Notes under the pieces: model-generated
Databases searched by the model: none
Seen by the model: the letters and a program-made list of their open reading frames with translations, nothing else
Told to the model about the DNA's origin: nothing
Translations under genes and position numbers: made by a program
Part shown: in pieces, positions 689 to 44,848 of the stretch
Numbering within the stretch: the first letter of the stretch is position 1
How the letters are laid out: each line of letters opens with the position of its first letter
NCBI RefSeq assembly: GCF_036785885.1
Contig: NC_092329.1
Location: forward strand, 4,836,001-4,900,000
Reading direction: 5' to 3'
DNA from: Coffea arabica
Taxonomy: Eukaryota > Streptophyta > Magnoliopsida > Gentianales > Rubiaceae
DNA: 64,000 bases

Positions 689-2891
689 TTAAGATCTTTG
701 TTCAACATAAGAACCAGCAAGTCCAGAAGTCCCAAGAACTGTGACCTGCAGTCAAGAATGCAAGCAGCCAAGTCAATGTTTCATCCACATCAGGCATACG
801 TATCATTTGTTCACAAGTCACTGTTTATTTATAAAGCAAGAGAGATAATTAATTTCAAGTCACGTCCATTTACTGCCACTACCAAACAATGCAGTTGAGA
901 AAATCATTTCTAATACTAATTTCTGGAACAATAAGTTTCATAGAAGAATGTCGACAAAACATATTCAGTTATAACACGAGCACGAACTCTTCAAAGTGAG
1001 ATAGAATCATAAAATCCTTTGAATGCAAGACATACATCATGAAAGTTGAAACAAATCAGACAGATTATACACAAGGCAGACCTAATTTCCAGCAGATTGG
1101 TTACTATAATGAATAGTTTTATGTTAAATTCATAAAAAATGAAGAAGGACATGTACAAAACCAGCCTAGACCCAATGAATATGATTTCTGCTAAGACAGG
1201 AAGAATGCCTCATGAAATCACTGGATGGAAAACCGTACCTTTCCCCACTCTGAATGAAGGCCACTGCACCTCATCTTTAGGTGTATCATTTTTGTACCTA
1301 ACTCAGTCTCAACTTTCTTTTTTAGATAGCCCTCTTCTGGACCAAATGCGCCCAAATATGCAACATAGCGCTGGTGGACAGTTTCTAGTGCATCAGCCAT
1401 TTCTTTTGGCAATGGCTTCACATCCTGCATAAAGAACAAAATTTTAGCATGTGGCAGTGGACTGAAAGTTAAAAATAAGTCAGTCCAAAACTTCATAGAA
1501 CTCATCTCACCTCACCACTTAGCCCAATGCTATCATCAATTGCCATCTTCAATGAAGTAAGAATCCCAGTGAACTCCTCAACCGCCTCTGCTGCACAAAA
1601 CACATTGGCCAATGCCTCCTGACTAGATTTGTCATCAGTTCCTTTAGACAGTGCTTTCTTCACATCATGGACAACTGCTGGAGGAAGCTCATCCCAGTTT
1701 GTGGCCATTAAGTCCTTAAACGCACATTCGATCTCTGAGTCTTTTATGTCAGGTGTATGAGCCACATCTTCAGAAAAATAACGAGCATTCCCAATTCTCA
1801 TGGTAAAAGGATTCTGAAAATCTATAATTCAGTGATGTCAAAATGAAGAAAATTAGATTCTAAGCGCAATCAAGAATGATAAACTTATACAATAGAAACT
1901 GATCAGAGGACAAAGCAAGGGAAAAACCTAAACAGACTTAAAAATAAAAAAATAAATAAAAAAAACTTAACCAGACTTAGTTTACATAGAAAGATACTTT
2001 TACCATGTGCATCAGTTATTGTACCTTCCAGAATGTGGCGCAGGGGAATCCGCATTCATCATAGGGGAATGTAATGTAGGATGCACATCTTAAAAAAAAA
2101 AATTCGTACACTCTTACACAAGATCTCTTCAGCTTCATTCCAAAACGTGGCCAACAAGGATGTCTACACATTTTGGTGCAAAATGTATAACTTCTAACCT
2201 TAAACATTTATATTTAATCCAACTCAATTGTGATCGTAAATTATGCTCTGGAGGCCCCTAATCCCTCAAACAGTGCATGTATTTAAAGCATTGGTCCACT
2301 AGTAGCCCTAGGTAGTCTATCCAAGTTTCTTCCCTTAAGCAAATCGAATATAGCTGAATGTATCTAGTTGGTTCCCGTGGAAAGCTACCAAAGAGGGGGG
2401 AAAATAATTTTTATGTGATAACTGAATTCATGGTCAACAGATATGTGATAGTAACAATCAAATTGAGCAATTTCTTATGATGCATCTGAGCTAAATAGGT
2501 TAACACTCTATCAATATACTAATTACTCAGAAATTAAGAGTCAGCGTAAATATGTTTATCTTTTGGGCCATTATTAGTACACTCAAAGGTAAATATAGAA
2601 GCAAATTCAAGAATAAATTCCTGAAAATTAAATCCTCCAAGACCTCAAATAGATATACAGGGATATGTTGAAAGAAAAAAGACTAAGTGATAGAGAAAGC
2701 CATTGGAAAGTACCAGAAGCGAGTGGTTTGGAAGAAGACGTCGGAATGGAAGGGCGATTAAGATGGAGGTGGCGGACGTGGTTCACGGCGGCGACGACGG
2801 CAGCGGCGCTACCGCTGGAGGAAGAGGAGATACCCAGAGATCCGCGGCGAAAGGCCCGATATAATGATCTCAGCACCATCGTCTTCTCCAT
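689..2891 (-). CDS. SDH5: Succinate dehydrogenase subunit 5, mitochondrial (SDH5)
   Basis: Plant-specific accessory subunit of respiratory complex II in the inner mitochondrial membrane. Coding exons on the minus strand: exon 1 2891-about 2714, exon 2 1813-1511, exon 3 1424-1239, exon 4 745-689. Exon 1 starts MEKTMVLRSLYRAFRRGS and is rich in Arg, Ser and Ala with no acidic run, as expected for a matrix-targeting peptide. Exon 2 carries the NARYFSEDV and FKDLMATNWDELP blocks. Exon 3 carries KKKVETELGTKMIHLKMRCSG. Exon 4 encodes VTVLGTSGLAGSYVEQRS and stop, the characteristic SDH5 C-terminus. Exons 2-3 and 3-4 join in phase 0 at clean GT..AG sites. The best exon 1 donor (after 2714) is phase 1, whereas the best exon 2 acceptor (CAG before 1813) needs phase 0, so that junction is unresolved. 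A small extra exon or a weaker donor is possible. Total length is near 240 aa, close to the family norm. Family assignment is from remembered homologues. Confidence 0.8.
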
Positions 2892-3762
2892 TTTCCTTTC
2901 TCTCTCTTTTTTTTCCCTCAGCTGTAAACTGTTTAGAGTAGTGCAGCAGGAGATTGAATCGAGCTTCTGCAGCTCTTTTTTTTTTTTAATAATAATTGAT
3001 TAGTTAATTAATTAACTAAATTTTTGAAATTGATGATTTATACTGGACCGGAGAAGCTTTTGGTTTTTTAATTTTTTTTAGTCAAAATTTCAATAATTTT
3101 TGAACTTTTAGTCCTTGCAGCATCATTCAAAAATTTTTTCTGTTAAAAAATTAGAAAAATCATAGCAAATATTATGTTAAAAGAGATGATTAGTCTATTT
3201 TGTTAAATCTTATCATCATTAGTGTAGTTTTGTTGCTTATTTCTGTTGTCTAATTTATTGAATGTGAACTTTTTAATTGGTAAAATGTATGTATTAATTG
3301 TTTTCGACTTTTAATTATTTTAATTTTTTTACTAATACAACTTATAGACATGCACAAGAGGTATTTATGGAATAAAAGTTTCATTTCTTTCCTTAATATA
3401 ATTTTTTAATGTTACTTTTTCTTGGATTAATTTTGTTATAAAAACCTTAATCTCAAGGAGGTTTAGATAATATTACAAATTTTAGAGAAGGCTAGTGAAA
3501 TTATTAAAAACTTTAGGGGAGGTTTCTGAAATTATCCCATGGTATTATGGTGGAGTCTTTGCAATGGAAAATATTTGAAGGAGCTTTGAAAAGCTAACCA
3601 AACAGTCCACAAAATCATGAAACTGAAGAACAAAATTTTTTCATGGAACCAAACGGACCCTTCTTCCAATTTTCCTCCTTTCCCTTCATCTCAGATTATC
3701 CAATGGATACAGAGCAGGCTGAATTAGACTTTTGAGTTCCTTCCATTACTACGAGTCTACAA
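2892..3762. other. SDH5 upstream region and AT-rich intergenic DNA
   Basis: Upstream of the minus-strand SDH5 start there is a pyrimidine-rich leader (as read on the gene strand), then AT-rich sequence. Around 3505-3540 it ends in AGGGGAGGTTTCTGAAATTA followed by TCCC. This resembles the edge of a dispersed repeat also seen near 31740 and 37240. No gene is visible. Confidence 0.4.
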
Positions 3763-4650
3763 AAATGGCTTTGGACTCTTAGGAACTGATCCTCAAACAG
3801 GCGTTGGCTACGTCCAAAGACTCTTAGGAACTGATCCGCATCCAAAGACATACTTGACATCGCACCTCGAACTGCAGTTTACGTTCGAATCTACCTCCCA
3901 AACCTCAGCAGCATCAACCATCATAGTACTAGTAATAATACTACTAATAAACTTCCTCTTCTTTTTCACGTCCATGGAGGGGCTTTTTGTCTTTCCACGC
4001 CCTCCACTCTCAACTGCCATATTTACCTCAATACCATGGTATCCGAAGCTCAAGTGGTTGCGGTTTCCGTTCACTGTAGAGAAGAAGGGCTGCGGAGCAC
4101 CCTCTCCCCAATTCCCATTGGACATGAGGATTCTTGGGCTTCGCTCCAGTGGGTTGCGTCTCACCGTAATTGTGATGGACCTGACGCTTGGTTGGATAGC
4201 CATGCAGACTTTGGACGTGTGTTTATTTGTGGGTAATGCAGCTCAAAATCTGGTTATGGCTGCTGGGAAACCCGAGTTGAAGTTGGGTTTGGATATTCTT
4301 GGACTTGCTTTGGTGCATCCGTTTTCTGGGGGTTTCGGTCCTATCGGGTCGGAGTCCATAGACCCTGATAGGAAAGTCAACCCGGTGGTAGATGGTGGGG
4401 CAAGGGATGGTGCTTTGCTTGTTTGTGTGGTGTGGCTGAGAAAGACATCTTGAAGGATAGAGGGTGGCTTTATTATCAAGTATTGGGTCGGATCGGATGG
4501 ATGGGGGTGGTTGAGATCCAAGAGACTGAAGAAGAGGACCATGCCTTGCCTTTATACAGTTTGCAATCTGAGAAGGCCAAAAAATATTATTGATCCCAAG
4601 ATTGGCTGATTTCTTCAACAAGGACACGACTCCTTTGCTTCATTGATGGA
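3763..4650 (+). pseudogene. Decayed class I carboxylesterase (CXE) pseudogene
   Basis: Similarity to the intact CXE at 6523-7491 runs through this region but is split over several frames. Visible pieces in order: RLLGTD near 3820; AVYVRIYLPNL near 3880; the oxyanion-hole block FHVHGGAFCLST near 3965; MVSEAQVVAVSV near 4036; HEDSWASLQWVASH near 4125; a block corresponding to the nucleophile region that reads GNAAQN instead of GDSAGAN, so the catalytic Ser is lost; the VHPFSGGFGPIG block near 4315; and EEEDHALPLYS near 4530, which keeps the His block. An in-frame stop follows FICG near 4234, and the PEHPLP block is scrambled. A stretch with ACTCTTAGGAACTGATCC is duplicated about 45 bp apart (near 3775 and 3820). 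It is a host gene relic, probably an old tandem duplicate of the neighbouring esterase. Confidence 0.85.
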
Positions 4651-6522
4651 TTTCCTTGCTTTATTTAGCTTCAAAAGGAATATGTTGGGAACATGGCTAC
4701 ATCATTTTAAAATCTTAATCCGTTGTTTACATGGCTACATCATTTTGCTTTTTCGTTAATTATAATTTTCTTGTGGGAGCAGGATAGGCAGGGAAGGGAT
4801 GGTCAGACATTCTTGTGGTTAAGCATGGGATTAATTAGCGTGGAATCTAATTCAATCTTCATCTCCTCTTCGGAACGACGACGTTAGTTTAAAGTTTGTT
4901 TCGCAATATCGCACAAGAAGTCCAATGAGAAAGCAAGAGATCCAGCTCAACTCCTCTTTAATCTTCAGTAAAAGCCATTTTTGACCATGGATTGGAGGAC
5001 TGGACAACCAAGTTGATTGTTGAGAATTACTCTTTGGTGCTAGTAGAATTCAAGAACCAGAGATCTTAACCCCCGAAAGGAAAGAAAAATAAAAGAATAA
5101 AAATGCAATTCTTCACAGCTCTACATTCCAAAACTATCCCTTCATGATCCCAAAACTTCAGTATCACCAAACAACGAATTTGCATATTAAATCTGAGGTA
5201 AACGCATAGTATTCCTTTCTAATCATCGTAATCTACAATAACAATATAATAAATCTGGGAAGCCAATTGCATGTATATATACTCTAAAATCATTTTCAGT
5301 TTGTCGCAAGGCGTTGTCTGGCATTCGGTTTATTGATATTTTTTTCCCCGAAGGATCAGGCAAGAATCGTGGGCGTTTATGCTTGCATTTGGTCAAACTC
5401 GCGGTAGGTTAGAAAAGTCTCACTCCTGGACAAGGAAATTGTCAACTACTACTACTATTTGCTAACATCTTCGTCCTATATATGCTTTTTGGTCATGTCA
5501 AGTGTCAGCTAGACAACTAACCTCTTATTTTTAAGGAAAAAGTTTGATAGATTCAACTCCAATAATCATCCATCGCGAGTTAGGTTATATTTTGAGATCA
5601 TTAGTCGTTTGTGGGGATTGGAAGATAGTCATGTAGAGAAAAGGATTACCATGAATATCGTCTTCTTCCTCGGTGCTATAATTTTCTATTAGGATCGTAT
5701 CGTGTGGTAAGTTACCCACCTAGCTCTTGATGTCTTTTGGACAAGAAAATGCTATGCTAGATATGCATGGTTGTGATGAATTAACGAAGAACATTGAGGT
5801 GAAATTTACACTCTTTCCTTTGCTGGGAGGGGGAAATTGTTCTGAATCAATAAACCAATTTGGCTTATAGCATTTTTCTAAAGAATGTTTAAACAACAGT
5901 TGACGATGGACAGCCTTTCAGCAATTCTGAAATCTAGTAGCTCTTCCACTTCAGCAACAGACAGAAAACAGACTTAATTAGGGTCCGAACACTCTCTCTT
6001 CCAAATCTCTGGCTAATGGCTGCCCAAGTACCTAAAATGTATGAAACCATAACTATAGTAATTTATCCAATCGCATACTCCTCCACGGGGAAAGACATGA
6101 AATAATAATACTACGTCTTAAATGTGTTGTCAATCATCACAAAGAAATTTGTGCATCTTTGCAATGGAAATGTAGTAATTTATTTCTGTAATATTTCGTT
6201 AGGACTGTCAACCACCTATCATAATTACGCCATTGTGCTGTCTCAGCCTTACGCATTCAAATTGTGCATTGTTGGCCAAATAGTGGCTATTTGCCCAGCA
6301 TGGTTTGCTCCAACAACAGCATATGGCGCCCACCAACTAAAGCAATTATTTGTTGCCAGCACTGCCAAGGGTGCCTTGTCTAAACTCTAAAGAGTCCAAG
6401 GCCTGTCCTACAGCACTTCTACAAATTCTTCCCCTCCAGACTTATTAGTGCATAGAGCTGTCTCCGCAGTTCAGCAACTCACTTCACTTTTCCCGTCTTT
6501 CTCGGTGTCTTTCGCACACAAT
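4651..6522. other. Intergenic region and CXE promoter
   Basis: About 1.9 kb between the CXE pseudogene and the intact CXE. It contains the promoter and 5' UTR of the latter, but no TATA box could be placed with certainty. Open frames here are short and have no recognisable domain. No transposon ends were identified. Confidence 0.4.
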
Positions 6523-12540: not shown

Positions 12541-15039
12541 AAGAAACAAAATGTCAACATGTTTTTCCTATTATTCAATAATAAATAATGTATACACTTG
12601 CGCTATGTACTTTGTACGTCAAACCTTGGCCCATACCTTTAGGTTAGTTTTACATTGGTTGATACATTCCTTCTTCTTGTCAAAGAAGGAAAGAGGGCGG
12701 CTGGGTGAAAAGTGGAGAAAATATATATCCTCTATCCTCTGCTTTGTTAATTGGATAAAAGTGGCGTAATCAAGTATATCTAAAACATATATTTGATCAG
12801 AAGAAGTTTCTTCATCAAAATATGATGGCATTGATGGATGCTTTGACATAAAATTTAACACTTTTTAAACCAATTCTAAGCTTATTGCTTATCATAGGTG
12901 ACATCTTTGCTTATAATGACCTTCCTGGTGTCTAGATTTAACAGCCCGTAACTTTTGATTTTATGATCATAGTCAATGAAAATGCACTTTTTCTACTTTG
13001 TCATCTAACTTTTTCCTGATAGAGTTTGGGACATCGGAATAAGCAAGACAACCAAATACTTTCAAATGAGAAATTTTTTATTTTTATTAATTCACAACTC
13101 CTATGGTGTCTTCTCAAAATTGCATTGCACAAGAGATCTATTAGAAACATAATCAGCATAGAAAATAGCTTTTGCTGAAAAACCTTTAGGTTTATTTTTA
13201 GCATGCATAATTGATCTCACCATATCCATTAGAGTGCGATTCTTCCTCTCCATCATTTCATTCTACTGAGAAATGTATCTGAGTGTCAACTAGTGCTTAA
13301 TTCCATGTTTATAAAAAAAAAAAATCATCACAAATGATAAACTCAGTGCTTCTGTCAATTTTCAAAATTTTAATAAATTGACTATTTTGCTTCTCAACAT
13401 ACACTTTAAAATTTTTAAAAATATCACAGGCTTCGTATTTATTCTTTAAAAATTATACCCAAGTTTTTCTGTTAAAATCATCAATGAGGGTAACAAAATA
13501 TTTTCTACCACTGGTGGAAGGTAGCTCAACTGAGCACAGGCCAAAAATGTATCAACTCTAATAGTTGACTAGCTCACAAAGTCTTGCCTTTGGGAACAGG
13601 ATCTCTGTGTTTCTTCTCCAAAATACAAGACTCACAAGGTTTAGCAGAAAAATCGATAGACGACAACCCATACACCATATTCCTCTTAGTAAGAAAATTC
13701 AAACTCTCAAAATTCAAGTGACCAAGATGCATGTCCCATAAACAAATATCATCAAATACAATAAAGTTAAAGTAAGGTAAATAATGACAATTCATTGATA
13801 TAGGTCATAAACAACCAATATTAATGTATACCTTTACTATTAGTTCCAGACAATCATTAGTAATAATACAAATGCTATTTTTAAATAGCAAATTGTGAGA
13901 ACCTTGAATTTTGCAGAAATACCAATGCATACTTCAATTTCACTTTTATTTAGCATTCGTATTCTTTAAATCTTTTCTAGTATTACTTTCACTCGCTTTG
14001 ATATACTAGTGCATGTTTCATTCGTAGTTCTTATTCTAATCTACCACATTATTTCATTTGTTTTAAACAAGTAAATAAAAATAATTTTCGTGTGCAAAAT
14101 AATATAACGATGCTAACTATTAAAGCACTTAGCTTTGCTACACTAAGTTAATAATTCTTGAGTTATATTAAGTTTACTCCTTGAAAATAATTCCTTAATT
14201 TTTGTTATATAGCAAATTCTAATTTCGAATAAGGTTAAGTGTAGCTAGATATCTCAATATCTTTATGCAACCGATAAATTCTAGATAAAAACAATACAAG
14301 TACTCTAACCATATTTAGGACATAAAATTTCGATAACCAAAGCCTTGCAAGATTAGCGAATCATTAGGCGTTCAAATCACACTTGGGGATAATTTTTGGA
14401 GCTAAGTTAGAACTAAGGACTTAAGTAAATAATAGGAGGAGAAGTGAAAAGACTAGAATAACCCCTCACAATTTCACAAAATCACCCACGGCCATAACCA
14501 TTTTCCGCAATGCCAAACACTTCCCCGGAACACAATGATCATGCACCTCTTCATCCGGCCAATGCTCTTCTTCACCAACTGCGCACTCAATCCTCACCAA
14601 CACTCTACCTCCACTCTTTAGCTTCTGCAACCTTTCACCCCAGGCCACACTCCACCATTACATTGTTATCATCGACCGAGAGTGAGGGAGAGGTCGAGCT
14701 GCTCCATAAAGCCGAGAGTGAGGAAGGAAGCTGAGAGTTGCGATTCCATTTCTGGTTCTGTCCGCAAGCATCGAAGAGGGAGGAGAGGAGGAGGAACCAT
14801 GAGCAGACTTCCCTCTGCATTCTCCAAGCTCAGCCAGTAGTTATCCAGCTTCCACCATCACCAGCTGCACCCACTACAACCCAACCAGAACCAACTTACC
14901 CGTGCTTGAGGAGAAGAGCCGAGAGAGAGGGATAGACTTCAGCGTTCTGTCGAGTGAGTGAGCACCTAGTGAGGTAAATTTCTGGACTATAAAATGGATA
15001 ACCAGTGGTAATATAAGCAAGCTCTGGACTTGCATGAGA

Positions 15040-16110
15040 GGACTTTAAGTTCGGATGATGTAATTAGCTAGATGATGATTTGATATTAAGCTACCAGAAT
15101 CTGGTTTGGAAGAGTAAATGGTTCTGCCGTGTGCTGAGCTTGATTGTTGTAGCTGTAACATGTAAATTGTGGGATGATCAGAGGTTGAATTTGTGTTTAA
15201 TCACCTGAAAACAAGATGATAAAGTCATGCATGTATTGTGGTACAATCGGATGATGAATTCAAGCTATTAGGAAAATTTCTGTTTCGGTTAAATACCCCT
15301 GCCGAGTAGCTGAGATGGAAATGCAACTCTAATGTGTTTTCCGGAAGTGATTTGAGCATGCAATGGTGATTAACTAACTGAATCTTGGATGATTATTATG
15401 ATTAGGGTCATGCATGAATTTAATTAGCCTGGATTACTTTGGAAATAAAAATGAAAGAGAACTTTTCACATGCAAACTCATCCGAGTGTAGTCTCACCAA
15501 ATTCTGGAATTATGAATGTGTTTTGCTGCTGCCGAGCTGATTTTCTGGTCTGGATGTTAGCTAATTAACTCAGCAATTGTGCATGTGAGAATTAGGGGCA
15601 AAATAAAAGGCTTTAACTGAAGAAAATATCGGATGATGAACTAAGGAGCTTAGAAAATTCTGTTTTGTTGAGAATGATTCTGCCGAGAGAATGGTTTGGA
15701 AATGCAACTGAAATTCTGTTTTCTTGTGATAACCTGAGCACTCAAGTGTAATTAGCCGAGTGGAACTTAATGTTTATGATGTCTAGGACCCTGCATGTTA
15801 ATTCTATGAAGTTGATTGATGAGTTAAGGAACCTAAGAAATTCTGGTTTGATGAAAATCTTCTGCCGAGACTAATTAAGAAATGATTTGCTTAATTTGCT
15901 TAATTATGACAAGCTGTGGTTATAATCCTAACTATCCAAGTGAAGACAAAATGCTTAAGGGCCTGCATGTTGAGTTACACGATTGGACAATGAAACTAGG
16001 AACTTGGAAAAATTCTGGTTTTATGAATTGGAACTCTTATGAGCTGAAATTTTCCGAGACCTTAAATTTGATATTTAATGCTCAATCTGTCTTATGGTGA
16101 TGATATGAGT
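15040..16110. repeat. Diverged tandem repeat inside the solo LTR
   Basis: Several degenerate units of roughly 250-300 bp recur. Each includes GGATGATGA, AAAATTCTG, TGCCGAG and CATGCATG-type phrases in the same order. Divergence is high, so the unit length is approximate. Confidence 0.5.
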
Positions 16111-18098
16111 TGATGCATACGATTAACTAGTTAACAACATGTTAATTGAAGTTTGCATGAGGTCTTGTAGCTCGGCTAACCAAGAAAATAAAATGAAAGC
16201 AGAAAAATTGGTTCATGAATGATCATTCGAGACTAGCTGATATAATTTCTGGATTTGTGTTAGATGAGTATAATTGTAGCTTGAACCTGGATTTGATTTG
16301 GAAACCTTTACTAGCTAGCTACGTGTTTACATGTCCTAATAGAGTACAAAAAAAAAATTCTGTTTCAACCAAAAAAAACCCTGTTTTAAGAACCATTGTT
16401 ATTGCTGGACAGATTCTTGAATTTTCTTTGGGATGCCTAATCCTGTTGCTCGAATTTGATTATGAACCAGAATTTTCAATTTGACTTGGGAAATTTTAAG
16501 TGGTTCCTGGAATTGTTCCTTGGGGTGTTAGGAACTCGAAATGCATGTCAAAATGTGCACGTAATCTGTGAAGACTGTTTGGCAATGAATCATTTGATAT
16601 CTTGGGAGATTGATTTGGAAATAATGAAGTGTAGCTATGGATATAAACTGGAAAATTTTCCAGCCTTAGTCGCGTTTGATAAAGAATTACATATTGATTT
16701 CTGTATATATTTTGGGGCTGTGGAAAAATTGTACTACTATTGAATTCGCTTTATAATACCTCGAGATGGTCATGCATTTGAATGTTGGGGTGACAATGGG
16801 ATATTATGGATGGAACTTCATGGCTTTGGATCAAATACTTGAGTAGGAAGCTGCTGCAAACTTGGTCTTTGGTTCTAAATACTTGTTAGTAAATTTAAAC
16901 ATTTGAAATGTTAGCTTGGTTGCTACAAGAATTATTGGTTGGGTGCTAGGGGCTAATGATTGATGAAACCCTTGGCCATTGGAATGATTTTATAAAGTAT
17001 TACTGGATGATGGAAGTTAATTGCTGAAATGTCTTGGGGGCTTTACTTTTATTTTTATTTGCTTATGATGGGTTTGCTGAAACCAAGTGCTAATGACTGA
17101 TGAAACCTTGGTTGATCATTTTATTTTTTTTTATTCAATAATGCAATTGTTGAAAGCTAGGGCTAATGATTGACGAAACCCTAGTAATTTGCTATGTGAT
17201 TTTTGCCATATTTTAATCCATATTATGATTTCGAAACGGAATCGGAGCGGGGGGAAATTGTATCGACCTTGCGAACTCGAGTAGCTGCGTTCAAAATTAA
17301 CCAAAAATATTTCCCAGCTAGTATTATATTATAAAACTCCATATCTAGTGTTTTGCCTAAAACTTTCCAACTCGATAATCTTCTTTAGCTCAATCTAGCC
17401 CTGATAACTTTAGTAATCAAGTTCTATAGCTTTTGAAAACTCCAAGCCTTATTTAATTCTTCTTCTTTCCTTAAGCTTTGCACTTGGAATAGTTAACTAT
17501 AGGAAAAGTCCCAAAATACGAGCTTTACCAATTTTAGTGAAAAGCTTGGGAGACTTACTCGGCAAGAAACCCTATTTTAGGAAAAATAGTTTTAAGGATA
17601 ATTTTTGTAAAATGCCGTAACTTTAGGGAAATGTTCAAAGTAACTTTCTAACATTATTGTTTAGAGGTTTGTTGACTTATTTTAAGAAAAGGATACTAGT
17701 TACCCTTTATAAGGAAGAGTATCTTACGGAAAAACTATAAGAAACATTTCTTCTAAGTTTGTCAAGTTTCAACCTATGTAGACTCCTAATTTTTCTAAAG
17801 GAAGTAAACTAGTATTATCTTAAACCTCGATTTATATAAGCTGAAAAACTTATAATTTCAATATTTGATATTCTCGGATTTTGCGAGGACGCGGAACTCG
17901 ATTCTCAAATTGATATCTGAACTCCACTCTTGGTGAGTGTCCCTGCCTGTTCTTTTCCTACTTGAATTAAGTGCTTTCTTGACTCGATATGTGATAAATT
18001 GCAAAATGAGTTTTTGATCCATCGAAGTGAGCAGTGTGTACTTTATCGCACTAGCCGTTCGAGTGGTGACTTGCGTGAATCATTTTTCTCGTGAATTC

Positions 18099-18260
18099 TT
18101 GAATCTAAAAGTAGTTACGTCGTTGGGTGAATCCCTCGACACTTGAATCTAACTACAATAATCCTTGAATCTAAAAGTAGTTACGTCGTTGGGTGAATCC
18201 CTCGACACTTGAATCTAACTACAAAAACGTCGTTGGGTGAATCTCTCGACCAATTATCTA
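18099..18260. repeat. Short tandem repeat, about 65-bp unit
   Basis: Two near-perfect units starting TTGAATCTAAAAGTAG (18099 and 18164) contain ACGTCGTTGGGTGAATCC. A partial third copy of that core follows near 18226. It sits within the solo LTR. Confidence 0.85.
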
Positions 18261-20094
18261 CGGGTATATCTCGAGTATACTACGTCGGTAGGCGAAGTTC
18301 GGGCCCGAAGCAGAGGTATGAACGGTGACGGGTTAGGATTAAAATAAGTGGATCTACATGGACTATAAGTAGTGAGAGTTGACGGAGGGTCGACTACAAT
18401 AAATGGTGATCAAGCGAGGAAAATGGCTCCTGAGAGCCCCTGTATCCTACCTTGTATTGTTATACGCTTTCTTAATTGTTTAACCTGTTTAAGTTATTAC
18501 TCGCTGTTTGAATTACGTGACTGCATGTTTTGGGGCACCACTGAGTTTTAGTTCACCCCATGTTTATTTGTTTTCCATACAGGATGGGAAGTTTGAAAGT
18601 TTTTGGGCAGCTTATATTTCCTATAGTTGTACTTGAATATTTTGAATGTAATTTTCGGGTTGTAATGAATTCTAAGCTAAGCATTGTACTTTTCATTTTG
18701 GATTGCCACTTGAAGCTAGAAAAGTGTAATCTCTAATTCTAATACTCAAATTGTATGTTTGTATTAGTATAGTATACCCTTATCTATTGCGAGCGTCGCT
18801 GGAAGTATTTAAGAACCGTCGATTGGCTAAGTTTTATGTTGTTATCTTTGAAGCTAATGTGGTGGTAGAAATCGATTTATTTTCGGAAGAATCATAATTG
18901 TAAAAGCTTGGGTTAATCGTCGGAAGGTTTTAAGTTAGAATGCTTGCGTGAGTCCTGGCGAGAGTTGGGCAGACGGCCCGCCAACCCTTTGGTTCGCCTT
19001 AAGGGGAAGTGGGGTCGCCACACAAATCATATCCCTTGTCAAAAAATTACCCAAAACTCAACAAATTATGATTAAAGTTTGACACATAGAAAATATCAAA
19101 TAATATTAGATTTACCATTCGTCAAAGTGATACCAGTTTTTTCTTTTTGAAGCATAAGCACCCTTTCATTATTAACAAATTTAACAGAAAATCTGAAAGA
19201 CTCATCCAAATTAGTAAACATATTTTTATTACCACACACATAATTACCATAGTCAGAATCCAAAAATCATTATTTTTCTTATTTTCTTCTATTCTTGAGC
19301 TAGAAAATAAAATGGTTTCATCATTTTCAATATCATTCTTTGCCATATTAGCATGCCTAACTTTATTGTTAGAATTGTATCAGTACTCATTTTTATAATA
19401 ATCAAAATTTTTACAATTATGGCACTGAATATTATGTCTATGAGAATTATTATTATTTTCATGCTTATTATTGGGATTATTGTTATCTCTTTGCTAGTAA
19501 AAATTGCCTCTACCTCGGCCTTTAAAATTGTTTCTACCATGGCCTCATCCTCATCCTATGAAAATTTGATTCCGCTGATTCAAAACATCACTCTTCTATG
19601 GCATATATGGCATTTGCGTATAGTGCTACTCAAACATTATATATGGTTGAGAAGAATGTTTGAATTTTTTCGGCATGACCAAGTTAGTCCTGCCAAAATC
19701 TATTGTGATAGCATGTCTGCAATTAAGTTGTCAAAGAATCTTGTATTTTATGAGAGGAGCAAGTACATTGACATCAAGTTTCACTTCATTCATGAACTAG
19801 TTTAAAATCAAGAAATTGCTATTGACTATTGCAAGAGTGAAAATCAAGTGACAAATATTTTCAAGAAGCCATTAAAGGTGGAACTATTTCTCAAGTTGAA
19901 AAAAATGATTGGTATAGTGAAATTTGAAAACATTGGTTTAAGGGAGGTAATCTAGGATTCTAAACTAAGTCTTTTTAGTATTAGTATATTTATTGTATAG
20001 TTTTTTATGCACTGTCAAGGTACTCGCAAGCGAATATTGATACATGCCATGTAATTTAATTTCAAATTTGAAGTTTACTTTTTACATAGGTGAC

Positions 20095-39544: not shown

Positions 39545-41442
39545 AAGTAAAGAAACAAAATGTCAACATGTTTTTCCTATTATTCAATAATAAATAATGT
39601 ATGCACTTGCGCTATGTACTTTGTTACGTCAAACCTTTGCCCATGCCTTTAAGTTAGTTTAACACTGGTTGATATATTCTTTCTTCTTGTCAAAGAAGGA
39701 AAGAGGGTGGCCGGTGAGAAGAAGAGAAATATATATCCTCTATCCTCTGCTTTGTTAATTGGATACAAGTAGCGTAATCAAGTATATCTAAAACATACAC
39801 TTGAAAGAAGTTTCTTCATCAAAATATGATGGCATTGATGGATGCTTTGACATAAAATTTAACATTTTTTTAAAACAAATTCTTAGCTCATTGCTCATCA
39901 AATGTGACATCTTTGCTAGTAATCACCTTTCTGGTGTCTAGATTGAACAACCCATAACCTTTGATTTTATGATCACAGTCAATAAAAATGCAGTTTTCTA
40001 CTTTGTCATCTAACTTTTTCCCGATAGAATTTGGGACATCGGAATAGAGAAGACAACCAAATACTTTCAAATGAGAAATATTTGATTTCTTATTAATTCA
40101 CAACTCTTGTGATGTTTTCTCAAAATTGCATCGCACAAGAGATCTATTAGAAACACAAACAACATAGAAAATAGTTTCTGCCCAAAAACCTTTAGGTATA
40201 TTCTTAATTGATCTCACCATATCCAATAGAGTGCGATTCTTCCTCTACTATATCATTATACTGAGAAGTGTATCTGACTATGAATTGGTGCTTAATTCCA
40301 TGTTTATAAAAAAAATCATTACAAATAGTAAACTCAATGCTTCTCTCAATTCTCAAAATTTTAATAAATTGACTAGTTTGCTTCTCAACATACATTTTAA
40401 AATTTTAACAATATCACATGCATCCTATTTATTTCTTCAAAAATGCACCCAAGTTTTTCTGTTAAAATCATCAATGAAGCTAACAAAATATTTACTACCA
40501 CTATTGTAAGGTAACTCAACTGAGCACAGGCCAAAATGTATCAGCTCTAATAGTTGACTAGCCCACAAAGTCTTGCCTTTAGGAACAGGATCTCTGTCTT
40601 TCTTCTCCAAAATACAAGGCTCACAAGATTTAGCAGAAAAATCAATAGAAGACAGCCCATATACCATATTCTTCTTAGTAAGAAAATTCAAAATCCCAAA
40701 ATCGAAGTGACCAAGATGCATGTGCCATAATCAAATGTCATCAAATACAATAAATTTAAAGTAAGGTAAATAATGACAATTAATTGATCTAGGTCGTAAA
40801 CAACTAGTATTCATCACTACAACAAAAATGGCTTTTGGTGACATGCCTATCAGGACACTTGTTGGTTTGTGTCATTATAGCACTTCTATTATGACACTTG
40901 TTATCAACTCAATAATATACACTCTAATTTTTTTTATTTTATCTGATATAAAAATAATAATGTGCCTTTAGATTACATATCATGACACTTGAGAAAATGT
41001 GAGATATACCAAAAAAAAGAAAGGCACAAGACAACATCATAGTGAATTGGCGGAAGATTCATTTGCTGTGAAACATTCAAAACTTTCAATTTGCCGGGCA
41101 AAACAATTAGTCAAATTTTGCTTGTTCTGATCTCTCTCACAAAAAACACTCTCTCCGCAAACTAACTCTCGGCAAATTATCTCTCAGCCAAGTAGGGGCG
41201 TTAAGACCGGAGCTTTTTGTAGATGGCGCAAGACGATTGCAGATGGGTAACGAAAACCTGAAAAATAATAGACCACCGAGGTACTAAATGAGACTTTCTT
41301 TCACTTTCTTTTCTTTCGCTCTTTCTGGCTCCCGTGACCAGTTAAAGTAAGGAAGAATCAGCCACGGGATTCATCATCTCCGCTTTCAGTTCATTCCATT
41401 CCTCAAGCTCACCACCGTCTTTCTCCCCACAACCGCCACCAC

Positions 41443-42065
41443 CACCACTGCCGGAATGTTATTTCTCTTTTCCCTAGCTACTCTCCTTCTACAATCACCA
41501 ACACCAGCACCAGCACCAGCTGTTCTTTCTCTTCTTCTTCTTCTTCCTATTTTGGGATTTCGATTTCTGACAAAACCATGATTTCTGTTTCGTCTGGAAA
41601 AGCTAAGTCAAACCGATCTTTGTATATTGCAGCTGGGGTGTTTGAGAAATTTACTAAGAGACCAATTAAAGCGGTTATGTTTTCCCAGAGGGAGGCGAAA
41701 GCTTTGGAGGTAGAAATGGTGTATACCCAGCATCTTTTGCTAGGACTTATCGCAGAAGATCGTTTTTCCGGTGGGTTTTTAGGTTCTGGAATCACAATTG
41801 AGATGGGTCGCCAAATCGTTAAGAGCATTTGGCATACCGATATTGATGATAAGGAGGAGAATGGTAAGGGTAATGGGAGTGGTCTTGGTCCTGAGGGGGC
41901 AGAGGTCTCGGCCACGGATGTGCCATTTTCGCCGAGCACTAAGCGGGTTTTTGAGGCTGTTGTGAAGTATTCGAGGATTATGGGGTATAATTATATTGAG
42001 CCGAAACATATTGCCGTTGGGTTGTTCACTGTCGATGATGAAAGTGCTGGCCGTGTACTTAAGAG
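41443..42065 (+). pseudogene. ClpD (ERD1)-like first exon captured in the CACTA element
   Basis: The open frame reads SSSSSSYFGISISDKTMISV, then VFEKFTKRPIKAVMFSQREA, MVYTQHLLLGLIAEDRFSGG, a linker, DVPFSPSTKRVFEAVVKYSR, and IAVGLFTVDDESAGRVLKR. This is the Ser-rich plastid transit peptide region plus the Clp N-domain of a ClpD-type Hsp100 chaperone. It ends at a normal donor (AAGAG/GTAGTA), and the rest of the gene, including both ATPase domains, is absent. The sequence upstream (about 41200-41440) may include source 5' UTR or promoter. The original start codon region appears altered, leaving ATG at 41578 as the first in-frame Met. The frame is otherwise long and open (163 codons from that ATG). 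It could be transcribed as a truncated or chimeric RNA. Confidence 0.85.
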
Positions 42066-42492
42066 GTAGTACATTTTGAATTAGCATATTTTTATCCATG
42101 AATGCTTTACTCACTCAGAATTGCAATTTTTTTAGTGCTTTATATTGGTCTTATATGGACTGTTGAAACTATTGTTACAACTTGTGATCGAAGACAAAAC
42201 TAAGAAGGGATGACAAAACAAGTCAACTGGGAGGTAAAAAGAATCACCCAACTCTGACTGTACATCCTGCCCCTGGGGCTTCCTTTGGCATATCTTCTGC
42301 CTGCTCTTCCCTAAGATCACCTAAGAGCTGCAACACCGATGGAAATGCCCATGAACCCATGCTCCAGAACAATTATCACAGCACCCGAATGCATATGCAC
42401 AGGGTCCAGAGCTCACCTATTGTCTGCAATCTTACTGGTCTTCAGTAGCAGAATAGTGCTTTTGGTCTTCAGCTGTATCCTCAGAATTACTA

Positions 42493-43088
42493 CCGAACAA
42501 GAAACTTCAACTTGTTGGAGTGACAGCAATGCTTATGGCTTGCAAGTATGAAGAAGTTTCTGTCCTTGTCGTTGAAGACCTCATATTGATTTCTGACAGG
42601 GCTTACTCCAGAAATGACGTGCTTGAGATGGTAGGTTTGTTATGGCATCTATTGCCTATGAGTTAATCTTTGATAGATGAAGGTTTCCTTTGTCATATAA
42701 CTAAAATTGAACTGTGGCTCGTTGCAGAAGAGCTTAATGATCAACACCTTGCAGTTTAATCTTTCAGTGCCTACTCATTGTGTCTTCATGAGGTGTTTTC
42801 TTAAAGCTGCTCAATCTGATAAAAAGGTATTGTTTCGTATTTAGTGTATGTGAATTTTTTGCACTATCTTAATCTGCCTAATAACTGGCAATAATCTTCT
42901 GGTGACTAGTTGGAGCTTCTATCCTTCTTTATTGTTGAGCTGTGCCTCATCGAGTATGAAATGCTTAGGTTCCCCCTGTCTTTCTTAGCAGTAGCAGCAA
43001 TCTTTATTGCACAATGCTCTGTCAATGGGTTCAAGAAGTGGACTAAGACATGCGAGAGGCACACAAACTACACTGAAGATCAGCTTTT
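42493..43088 (+). pseudogene. Mitotic cyclin (B-type) exons captured in the CACTA element
   Basis: Three consecutive exons with introns retained. About 42493-42630 reads [20 protein letters not shown] and [19 protein letters not shown]. 42728-42826 reads [20 protein letters not shown] and [10 protein letters not shown]. 42910-43088 reads [20 protein letters not shown] and [17 protein letters not shown]. Borders are GT..AG. These cover the end of the cyclin box and part of the C-terminal cyclin fold of a B-type (B2-like) cyclin. The N-terminal destruction-box region and C-terminal end are missing. Retained introns mean it was captured as genomic DNA, not via mRNA. The 42180-42490 segment between the ClpD and cyclin parts may be a third captured piece but is not recognised. 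Confidence 0.85.
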
Positions 43089-44848
43089 GTAAGTGGTTCC
43101 TTATGCTTTTCACACGTTAATGAATTTTATTGCTAGCTATGATGATCCAATGATCCCAACAAATTTTGTGCATAGGTGGAACCATCTGAAGATTGATGGG
43201 TATTTGTGGTTATAACTGAAGGCTCTAATTTCATTGGAAAGTTTGGAAGCTATTGCAAGTTCTTTCTACTTGTTAGGGAAGAGAATCTTTTAGTTTGTGC
43301 ACATGAGGATCTTTTAGTTTGTCCACAAGAGAATCTTTCAAGTTTGTACTTGTTAGGGATTTGCTATGTTAGTACTTATTACTGACTTTTAGTTCAACAA
43401 ATTATATTTGAGCAATGACTTTTGCTTTTAGATTGCCATATGCATTCTGTTCTTTGAGATAATTTTACAAGTCCTTTGGTTTCTGATTGACGGAATGTAT
43501 AGTAGGGAGCACTACCTGCAGGTTGCTTCTATATCAAAAAAAAAAAAAAAAAAAACTCCTGGCAATTAAAAGTGTTAGCATAGAATTCGATATCCTAATG
43601 TTGTACTATAGCTATCCTGACACTTTCAATTATCAAGACAAGGGATTTTTGTTGGCAGTTGGGATGTTATAACAGCATAGTTTTCCTTGACACATTTGAA
43701 TGCTATGAGCCTATCCCCATATTGGAAGGGACGACACTCGTCCGAGGTGTGAGAAAAGGTAAAGTGTCAGGTTAGATTATCTATACTGACACCTTTAAAT
43801 GCCGTTAAAGGTCATTTTTGTTGTAGTGCATGTACACCTTTGTTATTAGTTCTAGACGTGGATTTACCATTCGTCAAAGTGATACCAATTTTTTCTTTTT
43901 CAAGCATAAGCACTCTTTCATTATTAACAAATTTAACAAAAATCTGAAAGACTATCTGAAAGACTCATCCAAATCAGTAAATATATTTTTATCACCACAC
44001 ATATAGTTACTATAGTCAAAATCCAAAAATCATTATTTTTCTTATTTTCTTCCATTCTTGAGCAAGAAAATAAAATGGTTTCATCATTTTCAATATTATT
44101 CTTTGCCATATTAGCATGCCTAACTTTATTGTTAGAATTGTTCCGGCACTCATTTTTATAATAATCAAATTTTTTACAATTACGGCACTGAATATTATAT
44201 CTACGAGAATTATTATTATTTTCTTGCTTATTATTGGGATTATTGTTATCTCTTTGCTAGTAAAAATTACCTCTGCCTCGGCCTTTAAAATTGTTTCTAC
44301 CCTGGCCTCATCCTCATCCTCTGAAATTTTGATTCCGCTGATTCAAAACATCACTCTTCTATGGCATATATGGCATTTGAACATAGTGCTACTCAAATAT
44401 TATGGTTGAGAAGAATGCTTGATTTTTTATGGCATAATCAAGTTAGTCCTACCAAAATCTATTGTGATAGCATGTCTGCTATTAATTGTCAAAGAATCCT
44501 ATATTTATGGGAGGAGCAAGCACATTGACATCAAGTTTCAATTCATTTCAAACTAGTTTAAAATCAAGAAATTGCTATTGACTATTGCAAGAGTCAAGTG
44601 GCAGATATTTTCATGAAGCCATTAAAGGTGGGAACTATTTTTCAACTTGAAAAAAATGATTGGTATAATGAAATTTGAAGACATTGGTTTCAGGGAGGTA
44701 ATGTAGGATTCTAAACTAAGTATTTTTAGTATTAGTATATTTATTGAGTAGTTTTTTTATGCACTGTCTGGGTACATACAAACGAATATTGATGCATGTC
44801 ACGTAAGTTAATTTCAAATTTGAAGTACATGTAATTTTACATAAGTGG

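What the first reader, a model, noticed from the sequence alone, without database searches (positions are those of the whole stretch)
40815..43828. Pack-CACTA element that combines ClpD and mitotic cyclin gene fragments
The element has perfect CACTACAACAAAAATG ends, a CAT duplication and subterminal TGACACTT repeats, but no transposase. It carries the first exon of a ClpD-type plastid chaperone and three exons of a B-type cyclin in the same orientation. Introns are retained, so capture was from DNA. The ClpD part keeps a 163-codon open frame including the whole Clp N-domain, and may come with its own leader or promoter, so a truncated or chimeric transcript is possible and could act on the parent gene by small RNA or as a decoy.
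Basis: partly seen in the sequence, partly recalled or inferred. Interest (0 to 1): 0.75.

Follow-up and report, generated by a model that had tools for sequence, protein, structure and literature searches.

The report
Pack-CACTA transposon carrying three gene fragments
This is a non-autonomous plant CACTA transposon that picked up pieces of three host genes (a plastid ClpD chaperone, a PB1-domain protein and a B-type cyclin), spread in many related copies and now drifts without clear sign of constraint; it is a well-resolved example of a known kind of element.

Summary
The element at 40815-43828 is real: inverted CACTACAACAAAAATG ends matching 16/16, a CAT/CAT target duplication, and a related copia copy with an empty site and one CAT. 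The genome holds 516 exact copies of the end motif (0 for the reversed control), 14 other fetched loci with the ClpD piece, and transposase-coding CACTA relatives with the same ends.

Intron sequence is retained, so capture was from DNA.

The coding claims are weaker. Capture starts 14 bp inside the ClpD coding sequence: promoter, leader and ATG are absent. The 163-codon frame starts at a founder mutation (AGG to ATG), behind a 41-codon upstream frame, and stops in intron sequence. Its substitutions look neutral (100 nonsynonymous of 138; 96.5 expected). Native splice sites give no in-frame ClpD-cyclin fusion.

ClpD site patterns and one insertion shared by C3 and C4 put capture before the paired chromosomes split (probably Coffea arabica subgenomes, inferred). 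Cyclin probably came first. New member of a known kind (Pack-CACTA, like soybean Tgm-Express1). No RNA data were available.

The parts
40812..40814 (.). left target-site duplication CAT
   Evidence: a single CAT at the same place in the element-free copia relative at C19:3516578; the related copy at window 13626-13851 reads AAT there
40815..40830 (+). left terminal inverted repeat CACTACAACAAAAATG
40815..41140 (+). CACTA 5' terminal/subterminal region; 78% and 75% identical to the ends of two transposase-coding CACTA elements
41188..41369 (+). filler of unknown origin, immediately upstream of the ClpD fragment; also in relatives that lack ClpD (L022, L024)
41370..42242 (+). captured ClpD fragment: exon 1 from codon 5 to its end (42065) plus 177 bp of intron 1
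41456..41581 (+). 41-codon upstream frame, out of frame with ClpD; its stop overlaps the ATG at 41578
41578..42069 (+). 163-codon open frame with Clp_N match; start codon derived (AGG in both parents), stop at bases 2-4 of intron 1
42243..42498 (+). captured fragment of a PB1-domain gene (parents C4:21054824-21055079 and C3:21034566-21034824); the fragment itself lies outside the PB1 domain
42498..43128 (+). captured B-type cyclin fragment: partial exon 42499-42630, exon 42728-42826, exon 42910-43088, two whole introns and the start of a third
43208..43828 (+). CACTA 3' region shared with many relatives, with TGACAC-type subterminal repeats
43813..43828 (-). right terminal inverted repeat
43829..43831 (.). 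right target-site duplication CAT

Best explanation
A non-autonomous Pack-CACTA transposon. A CACTA lineage first picked up a piece of a B-type cyclin gene; a derivative later acquired ClpD exon 1 and a PB1-gene piece in front of a shortened cyclin piece. The composite was copied around the genome, presumably by a CACTA transposase acting in trans on the shared ends, starting before the paired chromosomes diverged, with one sub-lineage amplified recently. This copy inserted into a copia-type retrotransposon on C20. Shown: ends, target duplication, empty site, parents, family of copies, derived start codon, substitution pattern that fits drift. Inferred: order of captures (by parsimony), trans-mobilisation, mechanism of capture, absence of function.
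For: Ends, TSD and empty site. Of loci L001-L028 (four of them parental, several cut short), 10 show both ends with up to 2 mismatches, and 10 of 10 have matching 3-bp duplications (L008 and L018 are the same insertion on two paired chromosomes, so 9 independent). Parents for the three fragments. Transposase-coding CACTA elements share the end and the first 326 bp at 75-78%, with Transposase_21 and Transpos_assoc in one and DUF4216 in the other. Related transposase matches lie between facing exact ends on C1, C2 and C3 (only the first 100 of 516 end sites were listed). Cyclin before ClpD: relatives without ClpD carry a longer cyclin piece (L014, L016: parent 3710-4901, against 4251-4883 here), and L022 has a P450 piece between a 43-bp and a 254-bp cyclin-derived stretch. 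Neutrality: 138 distinct changes in the ClpD frame over 15 copies, 100 nonsynonymous against 96.5 expected.
Against: No transposase element with an intact frame and both ends was read end to end; the four transposase matches in the three intervals bracketed by exact ends carry stops. 2 distinct stop changes were seen where 5.2 were expected (P 0.07), and one copy of ten tested singly, L008, has fewer nonsynonymous changes than expected (14 against 18.6, P 0.04), so weak constraint in some copy is not excluded. 7 of 10 copies that span the frame keep 161-163 codons. Two separate captures of the same cyclin region (3' limits 4883 and 4901 of the parent locus) would undo the inferred order.
Confidence: 0.93

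Rival explanations
1. The element is transcribed and its ClpD and cyclin pieces act on the parent genes through small RNAs or as a decoy.
For: Captured pieces keep about 95-96% identity to their nearest parents; many copies exist. Soybean Tgm-Express1 gene pieces are transcribed and spliced when the element sits in a host gene (PMC1947982, abstract and passages).
Against: No parental promoter or leader was captured. This copy lies in a retrotransposon relic, not in a host gene. No RNA data were available, so this is untested.
Confidence: 0.06
2. The ClpD frame makes a short product without the parental N-terminal extension that has a function.
For: Founder AGG-to-ATG change present in 14 of 14 copies with data; 7 of 10 spanning copies keep at least 161 codons; 2 stop changes against 5.2 expected, P 0.07.
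Against: Same substitutions placed at random leave no stop in 37% of trials for this copy; nonsynonymous changes match neutral expectation over 15 copies; the stop comes from intron sequence; an out-of-frame 41-codon frame precedes and overlaps the ATG.
Confidence: 0.02
3. A real host gene or pseudogene locus (segmental duplication) that merely contains CACTA-like ends by chance.
For: None beyond the presence of gene sequence.
Against: Exact ends with TSD and empty site; the same ends frame copies at many loci; flanks are retrotransposon sequence.
Confidence: 0.01
4. Gene pieces entered by another route (Helitron, or retroposition of a processed transcript).
For: Several gene pieces in one element are also typical of Helitrons (recalled).
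Against: Introns retained; inverted ends plus TSD, which Helitrons lack (recalled).
Confidence: 0.01

Closest known systems
Tgm-Express1 of soybean (CACTA with five gene fragments; PMC1947982, abstract and passages seen)
   Same: CACTA-superfamily element carrying exons and introns of several unrelated genes, including a cell-cycle gene (CDC2)
   Different: It sits in an intron of a host gene and its pieces are shown to be spliced into transcripts; here the element lies in a retrotransposon relic, there are no RNA data, and three gene pieces were found.
Arabidopsis and maize Pack-CACTA elements (PMC8903248, passages seen; Catoni 2019 not held, seen only through passages of the review PMC13317346)
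   Different: Different genes; that paper's text gives 5-nt duplications for its rice and maize CACTA elements, while 3 nt are seen here.
Chenopodium CACTA elements with captured gene fragments (PMC8978399, passages seen)
   Same: Captured gene pieces in CACTA elements
   Different: The passages place those pieces upstream of the element's own transposase-associated domain; none was found here.

Membership tests
CACTA (En/Spm) superfamily | terminal inverted repeats beginning CACTA | tested here: met
   16 of 16 bases at both ends
CACTA (En/Spm) superfamily | 3-bp target-site duplication (feature recalled) | tested here: met
   CAT/CAT here; 10 of 10 two-ended loci match; single CAT at the C19 empty site; PMC8903248 gives 5 nt for its own set
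CACTA (En/Spm) superfamily | subterminal repeats near both ends | tested here: met
   7 TGACAC motifs in the two terminal 250 bp, 0 inside
CACTA (En/Spm) superfamily | related transposase-coding elements with the same ends | tested here: met
   L040 and L041: same 5' end, 326 bp at 78% and 75%; Transposase_21 and Transpos_assoc in L041, DUF4216 in L040; facing ends around transposase matches on C1-C3. Their 3' ends were not read.
Pack-TYPE / Pack-CACTA | no transposase of its own | tested here: met
   7 ORFs of 60 aa or more inside: two with gene domains, five without any Pfam match at E 0.01; shorter frames not searched
Pack-TYPE / Pack-CACTA | captured host-gene DNA with parents in the genome | tested here: met
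   three parents
Pack-TYPE / Pack-CACTA | transposition in trans observed | not testable with these tools
   needs plants or several accessions

The most novel reading that the evidence does not exclude
The family is a long-lived shuffling line in which each new capture replaces part of the previous one (cyclin, then ClpD+PB1 or P450), and the founder's new ATG created a short ClpD N-domain product without a plastid signal, or a small-RNA source, that touches plastid proteolysis or the cell cycle in several copies.
Probability: 0.05. Interest if true: 0.65.

Novelty: new member of a known kind. Interest (0 to 1): 0.3.

Why it matters
It gives a clean series of gene captures by one CACTA lineage with parents, intermediates, an empty site and transposase-coding relatives all in one genome, which could test models of stepwise capture. 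As biology of the host it looks like neutral transposon content, and its main practical use is to warn annotators against calling the ClpD and cyclin frames genes.

Tried and rejected
Own promoter or leader for ClpD: rejected, since homology to the parent starts at L009:5667, 14 bp after the A of the parental ATG at 5681. The upstream ATG: my first reading was one base off; from the ATG at 41456 there are 41 codons, out of frame with ClpD, ending in a stop that overlaps the ATG at 41578. In-frame ClpD-cyclin fusion by native splice sites: tested, gives 165 or 188 codons with short frame-shifted tails. Selection on the ClpD frame: pairwise dN/dS runs from 0.43 to 1.79 with no clear signal; simulations agree with drift, with the exceptions told in the Against line. 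Single-parent assignment of ClpD (C8 or C7): not possible, 8 sites against 7 of 15. C19:3516578 as the exact counterpart of the insertion site: rejected, it is 96% like the window 13-kb copia and 88-90% like the copia at the element, so it is only a related empty site. Parent of the filler 41188-41369: none found; of 27 matches, 26 are the element and what look like relatives (not all fetched) and one is a 47-bp piece on C13 that was not followed up. Species name: no tool names it; Coffea arabica is inferred from 1.198 Gb, about 22 large contigs in similar pairs, and recall of that species' karyotype (the listing of PMC12307819, abstract start only, gives 22 chromosomes and 1.13 Gb).

Rows left out of counts: one search printed only matches of 60 bp or more; one search compared 22 chosen internal stretches and listed ORFs of 65 aa or more for 15 of them; distances use 12 of the 15 ClpD-bearing loci (those with at least 900 bp aligned); one search counts of intact frames use 10 of 15 loci (L017, L020, L021, L023 and L025 are partial).
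Full report
WHAT WAS CLAIMED AND WHAT IS THERE. The sequence bears this out: 40815-43828 (3014 bp) begins with CACTACAACAAAAATG and ends with its exact reverse complement, with CAT on both sides. The 16-mer occurs 516 times on the two strands of the 1.198-Gb genome and its reversed control 0 times. Seven TGACAC motifs lie in the two terminal 250 bp and none in the 2514 bp between. Of the 7 ORFs of 60 aa or more inside the element, none matches a transposase; five have no Pfam match at E 0.01.

INSERTION. The flanks belong to a copia-type retrotransposon. The left flank frame 40440-40721 (minus strand) matches the GAG-pre-integrase domain at E 1.3e-5, 25.3 bits, below the curated cut-off of 28.4; the joined minus-strand frame reads on through the site, LITKVYMNTSC...; 'copia' is a reading by eye and recall. 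Related element-free copies span the joined site, with 21-26 bp matched beyond it before a separate gap: C19:3516578-3516799 (91% over joined positions 1-221) and window 13626-13851 (89% over 1-226). The C19 copy reads TATTCATGTATACC, a single CAT; the window 13626 copy reads TATTAATGTATACC. The C19 copy is 96% like the window 13-kb copia and 88-90% like the copia at the element, so it is a related empty site, not the exact counterpart.

THREE PARENTS. (1) ClpD: element 41370-42242 matches C8:4159793-4160666 (94.7%) and C7 (92.0%, or 94.7% when gaps are left out). The C8 locus L009 holds a ClpD-like gene: exon 1 reads MELSCSSSPLSVHS..., further frames match AAA_2 (E 4e-36) and ClpB_D2-small (E 1.9e-23), and the translated N-domain is closest to Arabidopsis AT5g51070 (5gkm, E 5.9e-47). 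The C4 gene has a PB1 domain (E 1.7e-8), which lies outside the captured stretch. (3) Cyclin: 42498-43128 matches C19 (L011) and C20 (L012) at 95.7% and 95.3%. Cyclin_N and Cyclin_C match the first and third exon pieces in the element and in the C19 gene; 'B-type' is a reading by eye. The cyclin part keeps two whole introns and the ClpD part 177 bp of intron 1, so capture was from DNA. The three pieces point the same way and together make 1759 of 3014 bp.

THE CODING CLAIMS. The ClpD homology begins at L009:5667, while the parental ATG is at 5681, so promoter, leader and start codon were left behind. The ORF's ATG is AGG in both parents and ATG in 14 of 14 copies with data, so it arose in the founder; it corresponds to parental residue 75 (counted). 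A 41-codon frame from 41456, out of frame, ends in a stop that overlaps this ATG. The ORF stops at bases 2-4 of intron 1. Joining ClpD exon 1 to cyclin exon 2 or exon 3 by the native sites gives 165 or 188 codons with frame-shifted tails. Of 10 copies that span the frame, 7 keep 161-163 codons and 3 (L007, L018, L019) are broken; L017, L020, L021, L023 and L025 are partial and not in that count. Over 15 copies, 138 distinct substitutions comprise 100 nonsynonymous, 36 synonymous and 2 stop changes; random placement with the same spectrum expects 96.5 nonsynonymous (P of as few or fewer 0.81) and 5.2 stops (P 0.07). One copy of ten tested singly, L008, is low in nonsynonymous changes (14 against 18.6, P 0.04, uncorrected). 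For the window copy, random placement leaves the frame open in 37% of trials. This is drift as far as it can be seen.

FAMILY AND ORDER OF EVENTS. One search scored 40 of 772 candidates, so copy counts are lower bounds. Fourteen other fetched loci carry ClpD sequence. Loci L013-L016 have the cyclin piece but no ClpD, and the cyclin piece is longer (in L014 and L016 parent 3710-4901; in this element 4251-4883). L022 carries a P450 piece (E 3.5e-6) between a 43-bp and a 254-bp cyclin-derived stretch, and L024 is 96% like it over that interior. By parsimony the cyclin capture is older than the ClpD, PB1 and P450 captures; two separate captures of the same cyclin region are not excluded. L027, a more distant relative, has an enolase piece (E 9.9e-13) and a kinase match below its cut-off. 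Among 12 ClpD-bearing loci compared, pairs differ by 4.8-8.3% in a star-like pattern, except L003-L007 at 0.2-1.5%, a recent burst.

TIMING. Within the captured stretch the two ClpD parents differ at 15 compared sites; this element, L002 and L003-L007 match C8 at 8 and C7 at 7; L018 gives 7 to 8, L008 6 to 9, and the shorter copies similar mixtures. PB1 gives 5 to 2 of 7 and cyclin 3 to 0 of 4 with one other for this element, which are too few to decide alone and lean to one parent. L008 (C4) and L018 (C3) are one insertion: same ACT duplication, same internal structure, and 578 bp of left and 242 bp of right flank aligned, the right limit being the end of the fetched locus. Capture and spread therefore began before C3/C4 (and probably C7/C8) diverged. 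The pairing of contigs, the size and the number of large contigs fit Coffea arabica; this is inference, no call names the organism. If the pairs are haplotypes rather than subgenomes, the relative order still holds.

TRANSPOSASE SOURCE. L040 (C3) and L041 (C4) share the end and the first 326 bp at 78% and 75%; L041 encodes Transposase_21 and Transpos_assoc and L040 a DUF4216 domain. Neither has a second end in the stretch read. Searches place related transposase matches between facing exact ends at C1:38805898-38822343, C2:9217161-9229561 and C3:14714648-14744435; the four matches in these three intervals contain stops. Only the first 100 of 516 end sites (C1-C4) were listed, so intact pairs elsewhere are not excluded. 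A working autonomous partner is likely in the past but not shown now.

LITERATURE. Pack-CACTA elements carrying pieces from several loci are in print (PMC8903248, passages), as is capture by aberrant excision of neighbouring elements (PMC13317346, passages). Soybean Tgm-Express1 carries five gene pieces including CDC2, with introns (PMC1947982, abstract and passages). Searches for CACTA with cyclin (15 of 42 papers listed), ClpD with transposon and captured (5 of 5) and Coffea arabica with CACTA (12 of 121) showed no title or abstract start that reports this element; most subscription papers are not held.

VERDICT. An ordinary but unusually well-documented member of a known kind. Interest 0.3.

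Noticed in passing
L021 (C6:42958500-42968400) 2631-4397: A 1767-bp insertion inside a relative of the element, with an 8-bp duplication (ATCATGAC), ends that look hAT-like by eye (TAGG...CCCTA) and an IQ-motif gene piece (E 0.00025): possibly a nested Pack-hAT.
   Followed up: partly
L003, L004, L005 (and parts in L007, L026): A shared insertion of about 1.3-1.4 kb in the cyclin exon 3 region of a recently amplified sub-lineage (copies 0.2-1.5% apart); its own type was not determined.
   Followed up: partly
L022 and L024 (C9:48.38 Mb, C16:27.61 Mb): Relatives of the element carry a cytochrome P450 piece instead of ClpD and PB1.
   Followed up: partly
L027 (C14:22.82 Mb): A more distant relative with an enolase piece and a kinase-like piece below its cut-off.
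   Followed up: partly
window 13893-19023: A copia copy in the same window (12946-13893 and 19023-19458) is split by about 5.1 kb of other sequence; its C19 relative (L043, 96% identical) is not split.
   Followed up: no
C16:37578308-37723039: Three near-identical open transposase frames (98% to L041) lie about 69 and 74 kb apart on C16, suggesting local duplication of a CACTA element.
   Followed up: no
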